A stretch of 22,761 bases of DNA from IMG/VR virus record IMGVR_UViG_3300045743_000053, positions 1 through 22,761 of that record. One strand, given 5' to 3'. Position 1 is the first letter of the stretch; the number at the start of each line of letters is the position of its first letter. Both the position numbers and the translations under genes were made by a program. Source of the DNA: a virus. Under the pieces are notes generated by a model. The model saw only the letters and a program-made list of their open reading frames with translations, had not been told where the DNA came from and made no database searches. Shown here in pieces: positions 6,983 to 18,635 of this stretch.

Positions 6983-7534
6983 TCAGCTGACCTGCGGGCG
7001 ATCCGGCAGGTAGCCGATGGTGTCCACGAAGGTGTGAACCACGCCGGTCGGCGGGCCAGCCAGGTTGCTGGCGCCGAACGTCCAGGCAGTCGCCGTGCTG
7101 TCCGTGCGGGTGATGATGTAGCCCACCGGGTAGAAGTCATCGGGCAGCGTCGGGAACTTGGGCACCGACTGGGTTTTGAACTTGCTGGAGGCGACGGCCA
7201 GCGAGTCGGTCTGCTCGATGCTGCCCTGCGCCACCTTCAACGTGCCGGCGGCGTTGAAGCCCACCACGAAGACACAGCCGTAGCCGTAGCCATCGACGTA
7301 GCCGCCGAAGCCGTTGGCGGCAGCGGCCACGCCGACCGGAACCGGCAGGAAAGTCACACCCGTCACCGCGTCGGTGGTGGGCGTGGCCTGGTTGGAGGCA
7401 GCGGCCTTGGTGTAGGCCTTGCCCTTGATGCCGCCGATGACGGCATTGGCCCAGGTCAGGGTGGTGGTGGTGCCGGCAGCGATGCCGGCTTTGGTCGTGT
7501 TCCCCGTGAAGGGGGTTTGCTGAAGTGCGTCCAT
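6983..7534 (-). CDS. Small structural protein, paralogue of the next gene upstream (183 aa)
   Basis: A Gly-, Ala- and Thr-rich, beta-type protein lacking charge clusters, a signal peptide or membrane helices, as is common in virion decoration proteins. Its second half (VFVVGFNAAGTLKVAQG, then KFPTLPDDFYPVGYIIT) matches the same region of the 7568-8083 product in order and spacing, so the two are probably diverged tandem duplicates. It ends with GYLPDRPQVS. AAGGAG stands eight bases before the ATG. It lies just downstream of the major capsid gene in transcription order and is followed by a terminator, which suggests a capsid decoration or head-fibre protein made in large amounts. That role is inferred. 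Confidence 0.75.
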   Translation of the reverse strand: MDALQQTPFTGNTTKAGIAAGTTTTLTWANAVIGGIKGKAYTKAAASNQATPTTDAVTGVTFLPVPVGVAAAANGFGGYVDGYGYGCVFVVGFNAAGTLKVAQGSIEQTDSLAVASSKFKTQSVPKFPTLPDDFYPVGYIITRTDSTATAWTFGASNLAGPPTGVVHTFVDTIGYLPDRPQVS

Positions 7535-15925: not shown

Positions 15926-16510
15926 TTAGAAGGCTGCGATTTCGGTCCAGGCCACGTCAACGGCGAGGTTTGCTGTGCCGGCCACACCAAATGCCACTGA
16001 GGGCCCCTGGATGATGAAGCCCTCGTTTTGGGCGAAGACCAGCGGATGCGCCGTGCCTGAGTCGAGGTCGAGGTCGACCACATAGAGGCTCGCATTGGGC
16101 GTGGTGATGGTCGAAGAAACGGGAAGCTGCATGATTGGGTCGGCATCCAGCGTTCGGGTGCCTGCGGTAAGGCCCGCCGCGAGAGCGCTCTTGCGGATGT
16201 CTGTCACCAGCGTTGTTCCCATGCTAGTGCGCTTCTTGAACGAGTTGGTCGTCAAGGTCAGCGCCGTTCCTGCGCTGTCAGAAACAGACCAGGCCCGCGC
16301 TTGGAACACGCTGAACACCGGCATGATCGTTGCCGTGGCTGCGGCCGTCTGCATGAACTGGATGCGGATGTCCTGAATCACGCAGATGCGCGAAGCATCG
16401 CCCCAGCGGAAGGAGAACAGTGTGCCGTTCGCCGCCTGGGAAACGGTCAGCGCGATGGTCGTTGACAGCCGGTAGCTGCCGAACGCACCGTAGTCCAGCG
16501 GCTTTTGCAC
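15926..16510 (-). CDS. Virion-type beta protein, start apparently lost to the HNH insertion (194 aa from GTG)
   Basis: The reading frame (DYGAFGSYRLSTTIALTVSQAANGTLFSFRWGDASRICVIQDIRI... to AVDVAWTEIAAF) matches a kind of protein common in phage structural clusters, in which I recall an N-terminus close to 'xxLQhQGxxGxVAEVExxxFRAhR' before the YG motif. Those residues are present here: the frame stays open upstream without a stop to 16600 and reads IALQIQGNGGVVAEVEG and on, but the first codon of that block is ATC where ATG would be expected. The only usual start codons are the GTG at 16510, with a poor SD, or a CTG at 16521. The ATC at 16585 has AGGA seven bases upstream. So the gene has probably been decapitated by the HNH gene upstream, or else starts at a rare codon. 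Function: probable virion structural protein. Confidence 0.7.
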   Translation of the reverse strand: MQKPLDYGAFGSYRLSTTIALTVSQAANGTLFSFRWGDASRICVIQDIRIQFMQTAAATATIMPVFSVFQARAWSVSDSAGTALTLTTNSFKKRTSMGTTLVTDIRKSALAAGLTAGTRTLDADPIMQLPVSSTITTPNASLYVVDLDLDSGTAHPLVFAQNEGFIIQGPSVAFGVAGTANLAVDVAWTEIAAF

Positions 16511-16585
16511 TGTCCGCAGCGCTCGGAAGCCTGTTCCTTCGACTTCAGCGACTACGCCACCATTACCTTGGATCTGGAGCGCGAT
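16511..16585 (-). other. In-frame leftover N-terminal codons of the 15926 gene
   Basis: Twenty-five sense codons, beginning ATC-GCG-CTC (Ile-Ala-Leu) and reading on to ...FRALRT, lie in the same frame as the 15926-16510 gene and lack a normal start. They look like the original N-terminus. The HNH stop codon is at 16592-16590, five bases before the ATC. Confidence 0.6.
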
Positions 16586-16589
16586 AGCT

Positions 16590-17096
16590 TTATCCTGCCT
16601 TTCTGGCGCTATAGCCTAATTGCCGAGTGTTTTTGCACGTCTTGCAGGTTCTCATACCACGGCCTAATGCGTGCGTGACCAAATTACCTGCTATCAATGC
16701 ATGCCCATTTAGGCAGTGAGTTTTTGCAGCGTTTGTGGCATTGAACGTTTCTCCGCGCAGCAAATTTTCTTTGCGCGAAACTGCTTCCAAATGGTCTGGG
16801 TTAGCGCACTTTCTGTTTCGGCACAGATGGTCAATGTCCAGTCCGACTGGAATTTCGCCAAACTTTCGTTCATATGCAAACTTGTGAGCCGATACAGTTT
16901 TCCCGTCTAGCCAGAATGCGCCGTACCCTGTACCAGAAATCCCACCCAAGAACTCGTGGCATCCGCTTTGCGTGAGTCTGATCTTGGAATCAAACCTGTC
17001 GTCTGCGTTCTCTGTCTTTCTGCCAACGCCCATGCCGGCAGTGAGGCCGACGATGCCCTTGTTCCAAGGGATTGATCCAGTCTTAAACAGTGCCAT
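16590..17096 (-). CDS. HNH homing-type endonuclease (168 aa)
   Basis: A free-standing phage HNH nuclease. It opens with FKTGSIPWNKG, a NUMOD3-like DNA-binding motif, then carries HKFAYE and the catalytic block LDIDHLCRNRKCANPDHLE (D89-H90, C92, C97, N99, H102), followed by EN-LLRGE and a second Cys/His pair region CLNGH...CKTCK near the end. All usual HNH residues appear intact. The DNA is markedly poorer in GC (about 43-55% in the rows I counted) than its neighbours, which speaks for recent transfer. It lies ten bases after the collagen-like gene, uses a GAGGAA SD overlapping that gene's stop region, and has taken the start position of the structural gene downstream. It probably cleaves phage DNA that lacks it. 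That last point is inferred from the family. Confidence 0.85.
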   Translation of the reverse strand: MALFKTGSIPWNKGIVGLTAGMGVGRKTENADDRFDSKIRLTQSGCHEFLGGISGTGYGAFWLDGKTVSAHKFAYERKFGEIPVGLDIDHLCRNRKCANPDHLEAVSRKENLLRGETFNATNAAKTHCLNGHALIAGNLVTHALGRGMRTCKTCKNTRQLGYSARKAG

Positions 17097-17105
17097 TTCA
17101 GTTCC

Positions 17106-18635
17106 TCAATTCCAAGTCCAGGCCACTGTCCACAGCCCGTAGATGCGCGTGCCGGCGCCGCCGCCGTATGCGCGCTTGCCAGGCTGTGCGTTCTTCATCG
17201 CAATCGCCGTGCCGGCCGTGCTGCTGACGATGCTGTTGGCGTTCGGCGGGTAGTCAATCGGCTCGTTCAGCGCGTTGCTGTTGCGCGCGTAGATCGTGAA
17301 GCCAGTCCCTGCGACCACATTCCCGGCCGTGACAAAGATCGACTCGGCGAAGTGCTCGTCTGCGCTGTGGTCAGCGGTGGCTGTCGGGTAAATCTGCGCA
17401 ATGACGACACTGCCGGCCACGATGGATGCCTGCCCAGTCACCGCGACTGACGCATCCGAACCGCCTGGGAAGGCGCCGAAGTTGATCGTCGTCGTGCCCT
17501 TCGCGCTCGATCCGCCGCCGCCACCGCCCGATCCTGCTGGGCCAGTCGCGCCAGTTGCGCCAGGGATCGGCGGGTCAGGCTCCGGCGGGTCGTCGTACAG
17601 CCACATCGCAATGCCGGCCGGGCCTTGCGCGCCTTGAGCGCCGTTCGATCCGTTCGCGCCGGCCGGGCCGGGCGGCCCTTGCTCGCCATCGGCACCAGCT
17701 TCCGCATCCATGAACACAGCCGGCCCCATTGGGCCTGCCGCGCCGGGTGATCCTGCAGATCCTGCTGCTCCAGCAGACCCAGCAGCACCGGGCGGGCCCG
17801 GCTCACCGTCTGCGCCGTCCTCTGCCGCCATGAAGATCGCCATGCCCGCCGGGCCTGCAGTGCCGGTTGCGCCGGCTGATCCAGCGGCCCCAGGCTGGCC
17901 GGGGGGTCCAGGCTGCCCCTCTTCGCCCTGCTCGGCGTCCATCCAGGCCATCGGGCCAACTGAACCGGCGGATCCCGCGGGGCCTGTCGCGCCTGCCGGG
18001 CCTTGCGCACCGGGCGGGCCCGGCGGGCCATCTTCGCCTTGCTCGGCCTCGAGGAACACCGCAGGCCCCATCGGACCCTGCGACCCGGCTATGCCTGCAG
18101 CACCAGCCACGCCCGCAGCACCTGGCGGTCCGGGTTGTCCGTCCTCGCCCGGCTCCGGCTCGATGTAGATGGGGTAGCCCGATGCACCCGCGGCGCCTGT
18201 CGCTCCAGCCGATCCAGTTGCGCCCGCAGGGCCAGCAGCGCCAGGGGGTCCAGGCTCGCCGTCGGCTCCGTCGTCCATCAGCACCAGCATGGTCGCGCCG
18301 GCCGGGCCCGTTGCCCCCGTCGCGCCCGTGCCGCCGCCCGGGATCGTGACCAGCGTCTGCGTGCCGGTGTCGGTGGCCGTGACGCCAGCGCCCACGAAGT
18401 TCAATGTCGTGCGCGCCGTCAGCGGCGCGCCCTCGTCTGCAATCGTGTGGCCGCCACTGCCGCCGCTGCCACCGAACGCCACGAAGGCCATCGTCGTGCG
18501 GTCGTAGTAGTAGGCCGTGCCCGTCAGGCGGTTGATGACGATGGGCGCCGCGTTGCCGTTCAAACTGGTGTAGAGGCTGAAGTCAGCGCCCGGCACGCCG
18601 TCGAACAGGACGACGGTCTTGGTGTTCTCTCCCAT
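17106..18635 (-). CDS. Collagen-like virion fibre protein (509 aa)
   Basis: A beta-rich N-terminal head (about 1-99) is followed by a collagen-like Gly-X-Y region (about 100-375) and a C-terminal globular domain (about 380-509) with [21 protein letters not shown], a TADHSADEH motif and a closing [11 protein letters not shown], a pattern seen in phage fibre proteins. The collagen region is made of blocks about 36-41 residues long, each ending in a short hydrophobic plus acidic stretch such as [12 protein letters not shown] and then PGPPG. Such regions form trimeric fibres; no enzyme motif is seen. It starts three bases after the large terminase stop codon with only a weak SD. A role as a surface fibre or adsorption aid is inferred. 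Confidence 0.75.
17511..18338 (-). repeat. Collagen-like Gly-X-Y region with seven acidic modules
   Basis: Seven copies of a module are visible in the protein: hydrophobic run, acidic patch, often GEDG or GADG, and PGPPG, separated by plain Gly-X-Y triplets rich in Ala, Pro, Ser and Thr. Spacings between modules are about 36 to 41 residues. The last copy ([13 protein letters not shown]) is diverged. At the DNA level the copies are clearly related but not identical. Confidence 0.75.

What the first reader, a model, noticed from the sequence alone, without database searches (positions are those of the whole stretch)
16510..17096. HNH endonuclease gene has taken over the start of a virion gene
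The HNH gene sits exactly between the collagen-like gene and a virion-type gene that now lacks a normal start. Its own first codons read ATG-GCA-CTG (Met-Ala-Leu). Behind its stop, the block ATC-GCG-CTC (Ile-Ala-Leu) leads straight into 25 in-frame codons that look like the original N-terminus of the virion gene. The two 9-mers share six bases; two of the three differences are synonymous and the third turns ATG into ATC. It appears that the HNH gene entered at the start codon, kept the old RBS and Met-Ala-Leu for itself, and left the virion gene with an ATC preceded by AGGA at seven bases. The virion protein is then made from ATC, from the GTG at 16510 as a shortened form, or not at all. The HNH gene is also clearly poorer in GC than its surroundings.
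Basis: partly seen in the sequence, partly recalled or inferred. Interest (0 to 1): 0.7.

Follow-up and report, generated by a model that had tools for sequence, protein, structure and literature searches.

The report
Phage virion gene with AUC start
In this bacterial virus a selfish DNA-cutting gene sits in front of a particle-protein gene whose normal start signal ATG reads ATC, and relatives show that this loss of the start signal recurs at the same spot, probably because the protein is made from the weaker ATC signal.

Summary
A free-standing HNH_3 endonuclease gene (16590-17096, minus strand, 168 aa) lies between a collagen-like tail gene and a structural ORF whose N-terminus begins at an ATC (16585). 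In related viral loci the homologues align from exactly this codon, nearly always as ATG-GCN-ATH-CAR (MAIQIQGNGG...). The 25 codons upstream of GTG 16510 are therefore the true, conserved N-terminus.

The causal story needs revision. The 9-mer resemblance is not significant (11% of ATG ORFs match as well). The loss of ATG is not peculiar to HNH insertion. Among 53 distinct homologues, ATC occurs in four, and ACG, TTG and GTG in one each, needing six to seven changes on the gene tree. Five of the seven share one junction: an upstream tail ...AAGGCnGGrTAr (KAG-stop), exactly 4 nt, then a non-ATG codon (5/5, versus 2/48 elsewhere; Fisher p=7e-6). The upstream gene is HNH in two, a small non-HNH ORF in two, and only a relic tail in one.

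Best reading: the inserted gene took the old RBS/start slot, and its 3' end now supplies the Shine-Dalgarno for initiation or re-initiation at a near-cognate codon. Initiation at ATC is inferred, not shown. A +1 frameshift fusion is the main rival.

The parts
17106..18635 (-). collagen-like tail gene (upstream neighbour); its end (..WTVAWTWN*) marks the slot
   Evidence: Pfam Collagen E 2.7e-20, PHROG tail fiber; same WVWN-type end upstream of the virion gene in relatives
17102..17107 (-). Shine-Dalgarno GAGGAA used by the HNH gene, at the position of the ancestral virion-gene RBS
   Evidence: anti-SD pairing -6.2 kcal/mol; distance to ATG as in HNH-less relatives
16590..17096 (-). free-standing HNH endonuclease gene, 168 aa
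   Evidence: PF13392 HNH_3 E 7.5e-15, phrog_826 E 4e-44; 56% identity to the HNH in the same slot of L003
16593..16601 (-). AAGGCAGGA inside the last HNH codons (K-A-G), candidate Shine-Dalgarno of the virion gene
   Evidence: anti-SD pairing -6.9 kcal/mol; same element in L003, L022, L032, L056
16583..16585 (-). ATC codon in place of the ATG start
   Evidence: ATG at this codon in 46 of 53 distinct homologues
16511..16585 (-). 25 codons of the conserved N-terminal arm (IALQIQGNGGVVAEVEGTGFRALRT)
   Evidence: conserved in homologues, replacement changes few relative to synonymous ones
15926..16585 (-). structural (virion-type) ORF read from the ATC, 219 aa; beta-sandwich fold predicted
16508..16510 (-). 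GTG that a gene caller would choose as start; probably not the start
   Evidence: no good SD; lies inside the conserved region

Best explanation
A mobile, free-standing HNH endonuclease gene occupies the slot between a tail gene and a structural gene and uses the position where the structural gene's RBS and start used to be (shown by comparison; the insertion event itself is inferred). The structural gene is still made, from its original N-terminal codon, which is now ATC. The end of the HNH coding sequence (AAG GCA GGA TAA) supplies the Shine-Dalgarno, so ribosomes finishing the HNH gene, or binding there afresh, initiate with fMet at the near-cognate ATC 4 nt after the stop (inferred). This should lower the structural protein's yield and tie it to translation of the upstream gene (inferred). 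The same arrangement (a KAG-stop tail 4 nt before a non-ATG codon) recurs in related phages whose upstream gene is not HNH (shown).
For: Homologues align from the ATC codon as ATG-GCN. Non-ATG start at the same codon in 7 of 53 distinct homologues (ATC 4, ACG 1, TTG 1, GTG 1), 6-7 changes on the tree, none with a canonical in-frame start upstream, so a sequencing error is very unlikely. KAG-stop+4 nt always with non-ATG (5/5) versus 2/48 elsewhere, p=7e-6. L036 has a very strong SD (GAGGAGGG, -12.2 kcal/mol) before ATC. Codons 2-25 look constrained in ATC lineages: window-L003 dN 0.19 with dS saturated; L036-L076 dN 0.02, dS 1.26. Precedent: infC starts with ATT in E. coli and ATC in Streptomyces, sigR with GTC (PMC5472188); AUU/AUA starts with extended SD in S. 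aureus (PMC13009471).
Against: No expression data. In L003 the best SD lies too close (TGGGTAGG, 3 nt). SD strength of the ATC/ACG group is not significantly above that of the ATG group (p=0.23). It is unexplained why ATG is not restored and why the gap is exactly 4 nt in five lineages. The constraint on codons 2-25 may partly predate the loss of ATG. All relatives are metagenome contigs; no cultured phage matched.
Confidence: 0.6

Rival explanations
1. A +1 ribosomal frameshift at the HNH stop (AAG GCA GGA-T|AA A) carries ribosomes from the upstream gene into the virion frame, giving an HNH-virion fusion; the old start codon is then not needed and drifts.
For: The 4-nt gap puts the virion gene in the +1 frame in all five KAG-stop cases and the frame is open through the junction; an SD-like AAGG lies just upstream of the Gly-stop pair, as in the E. 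coli RF2 gene (RF2 comparison from memory); GGG-U in L003, L022, L032 could re-pair in +1.
Against: In the window and L056 the P-site codon is GGA followed by U, which would re-pair badly as GAU. L032 has no upstream gene to shift from. L036 is in another frame (2-nt gap). The most conserved residues are at the extreme N-terminus, which a 168-aa fusion would bury.
Confidence: 0.15
2. The virion protein is made only from GTG 16510 as a shortened form.
For: GTG 16510 is the first canonical start in frame.
Against: Best anti-SD pairing is only -3.2 kcal/mol at 1 nt spacing; it removes the conserved N-terminal arm; the position is not a start codon in L003 (residue 26 is Thr), so it does not explain the other ATC cases.
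Confidence: 0.08
3. The virion gene is silenced or dying in these phages (no start codon, no product).
For: No canonical start; ATC/ACG are poor starts; contigs could come from defective phages.
Against: ORFs are intact from the ATC to the end in the window, L003, L032, L036 and L056 and keep the conserved protein sequence in several separate lineages.
Confidence: 0.08
4. An intron or other spliced element restores ATG-GCA-CTG to CAG-ATC-CAA in the RNA (MALQIQGNGG).
For: Joining ATGGCACTG to the codons after ATCGCGCTC would read MALQIQGNGG, as in L013 (MALQFQGNGG).
Against: No Rfam intron match; the HNH ORF fills almost the whole insert, leaving no room for a ribozyme; L032 has ATC without an insert; the 9-mer match is at chance level.
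Confidence: 0.03

Closest known systems
Free-standing HNH homing endonucleases of phages (T4 mob genes; PMC2988022)
   Same: HNH gene without intron between conserved phage genes, patchy presence among relatives, lower GC
   Different: It sits at the start codon of the next gene, which has lost ATG; the T4 cases are described as intergenic insertions that must fit into neighbouring expression
Genes with near-cognate start codons (infC ATT/ATC, sigR GTC; PMC5472188)
   Same: Conserved N-terminus that begins at a codon such as ATC
   Different: A phage structural gene directly downstream of an inserted gene, variable among relatives (ATC, ACG, TTG, GTG, ATG) rather than fixed in a family; IF3 control untested
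ShiLan element, hidden out-of-frame HNH in a phage methylase (PMC11855218)
   Same: HNH gene that invaded a coding region in another frame without any splicing element
   Different: There the host ORF reads through the insert; here the insert has its own stop and the host ORF follows it

Membership tests
Free-standing HNH homing endonuclease | HNH catalytic motif | tested here: met
   PF13392 E 7.5e-15; D89-H90, N99, H102 and the Cys residues shared with L003
Free-standing HNH homing endonuclease | no surrounding intron or intein | tested here: met
   no Rfam intron match; own start and stop
Free-standing HNH homing endonuclease | present or absent at a fixed site among relatives | tested here: met
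   present in window and L003/L005, absent in L001, L002, L004, L006 and others
Free-standing HNH homing endonuclease | cleaves the HNH-less allele and is inherited by homing | not testable with these tools
   needs cleavage assay and mixed infection
Gene with near-cognate (AUC) start codon | conserved N-terminus begins at a non-AUG/GUG/UUG codon with no canonical in-frame start upstream | tested here: met
Gene with near-cognate (AUC) start codon | Shine-Dalgarno at usable spacing | tested here: met
   AAGGCAGG, with AGGA 7 nt before ATC; weaker in L003
Gene with near-cognate (AUC) start codon | initiation there shown by experiment; repression by IF3 | not testable with these tools
   no expression data
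Group I intron with HNH | ribozyme core around the HNH ORF | tested here: not met
   no Rfam match
+1 programmed frameshift (RF2-like) | shift-prone P-site codon before the stop, downstream gene in +1 frame | tested here: inconclusive
   frame is +1 with 4-nt gap in five cases, but the codon is GGA-U in window and L056, and L036 and L032 do not fit

The most novel reading that the evidence does not exclude
Across a group of uncultured tailed phages, genes that invade the slot before a structural gene repeatedly end in a KAG-stop Shine-Dalgarno tail, and that gene's start becomes AUC or ACG. This would be a recurrent, possibly selected switch that makes a virion protein depend on re-initiation behind, or frameshifting out of, an inserted gene.
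Probability: 0.3. Interest if true: 0.75.

Novelty: new variant of a known kind. Interest (0 to 1): 0.55.

Why it matters
Near-cognate start codons with a known role are rare in bacteria and are missed by gene callers, which here would cut 25 residues off the structural protein (GTG 16510). A recurrent, phylogenetically replicated loss of ATG behind inserted genes is a natural experiment on how selfish genes fit into operons, and on whether an insert can make a host gene dependent on it. It is testable with a simple reporter.

Tried and rejected
Phages collection by protein and DNA: no homologue of the virion gene. Genome contigs pattern scan: two unrelated chance hits. Intron: no Rfam match. 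9-mer duplication: chance level. RNA structure at the junction: not more stable than shuffles. SD strength of non-AUG versus ATG starts: no significant difference. HNH relatives elsewhere have different starts and ends, so MAL is neither a family feature nor proven to be borrowed.

Full report
Observation. The window is a phage contig (virus record) with terminase, portal and tail genes on the minus strand. HNH 17096-16590 lies between a collagen-like tail gene (18635-17106) and an ORF that is open from 16615 to 15926 but has no ATG/GTG/TTG before GTG 16510. The HNH gene is poorer in GC (0.50, GC3 0.53) than its neighbours.

The 25 codons are real. A viral-contig search with the ORF read from the ATC gave 34 loci, of which 29 match from residue 1. 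Their DNA mostly reads ATG GCN ATH CAR... at exactly the ATC position. The motif (M)AIQIQGNGG.. is well conserved. AlphaFold gives residues 1-25 low confidence, in front of a beta-sandwich; Foldseek finds uncharacterised phage proteins, and weakly viral jelly rolls. A conserved but flexible N-terminal arm, perhaps for docking in the particle, is inferred.

HNH slot. HNH-less relatives start the virion gene 0-19 nt after the tail gene's stop. The HNH starts 9 nt after it in the window and 0 nt after it in L003. L003/L005 carry a 56% identical HNH in the same slot, the best match among those held in both directions, ending RKAG-stop 4 nt before ATC. A different HNH-like ORF sits in the same slot in L020 with ATG intact (named HNH by eye, not by a family search). 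On the virion tree the window pairs with L001, which has no HNH and ATG, not with L003. So the element was either gained twice or lost in between, as expected of a mobile gene.

Non-ATG starts recur. In 53 distinct homologues the start codon is ATG in 46, ATC in 4 (window, L003, L032, L036), ACG in L056, TTG in L022 and GTG in L057, needing 6-7 changes on the tree. The junction AAGGCnGGrTAr + 4 nt occurs in window, L003, L032, L056 and L022 and never with ATG (Fisher p=7e-6; the test treats rows as independent). A scan for that junction with any start codon returned only those loci and L005. The upstream genes are HNH (window, L003), a small ORF ending ..LRKAG (L022, and L056, where only its end was read), and nothing but the tail in L032. 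The same small gene with other endings precedes ATG starts in L021, L044, L074 and L076, and precedes ATC in L036 with a strong SD. So the loss of ATG goes with the junction, not with HNH.

Are the codons translated? Codons 2-25 show many synonymous and few replacement changes in ATC lineages (window-L003 dS saturated, dN 0.19; L036-L076 dS 1.26, dN 0.02). The constraint could partly predate the loss of ATG; the window's own branch is not separable. Initiation at ATC is the simplest account that covers all cases including L032 and L036, and precedents exist (PMC5472188, PMC13009471). A +1 frameshift would explain the strict 4-nt gap but not L032, L036 or the poor slip codon GGA in the window and L056.

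The 6/9 match is not significant (10.8% of ATG ORFs do as well), and the L003 HNH starts M-G-R at the equivalent of window HNH residue 24. Entry at the start codon is plausible from the slot position but not shown by the 9-mers.

Limits. All evidence is comparative and from metagenome contigs; the host is unknown; the mechanism of expression is untested. The counts depend on homologues that match the N-terminal pattern used to collect them.

Noticed in passing
L021, L022, L027, L036, L044, L056, L074, L076: A small non-HNH gene family (..EIARxxEYGWTKxTIHMDLPDAxxLAxFLRKAG-like C-terminus) sits in the same slot between the tail gene and the virion gene in many relatives; function unknown.
   Followed up: partly
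L032:3977-4003: A bare tail GGAAAGGCAGGGTAG + 4 nt + ATC follows the tail-gene stop with no upstream gene: looks like a relic of a deleted insert.
   Followed up: partly
window 17028-17096: The window HNH has a 23-residue N-terminal extension (MALFKTGSIPWNKGIVGLTAGMG) absent from its closest relative in L003.
   Followed up: partly
L020:3485-3991: A different HNH-like ORF occupies the same slot but leaves the ATG intact, so the slot is a repeated target.
   Followed up: partly
window 16511-16585: The first 25 virion codons have low GC3 (0.52 versus 0.77 in the rest of the gene), which could mark a co-conversion tract carried in with the HNH gene.
   Followed up: partly
L057, start codon at 7317 counted on the minus strand of the locus: A GTG-start homologue behind yet another upstream gene (..GRTLEL*), also with a 4-nt gap between stop and start.
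   Followed up: no
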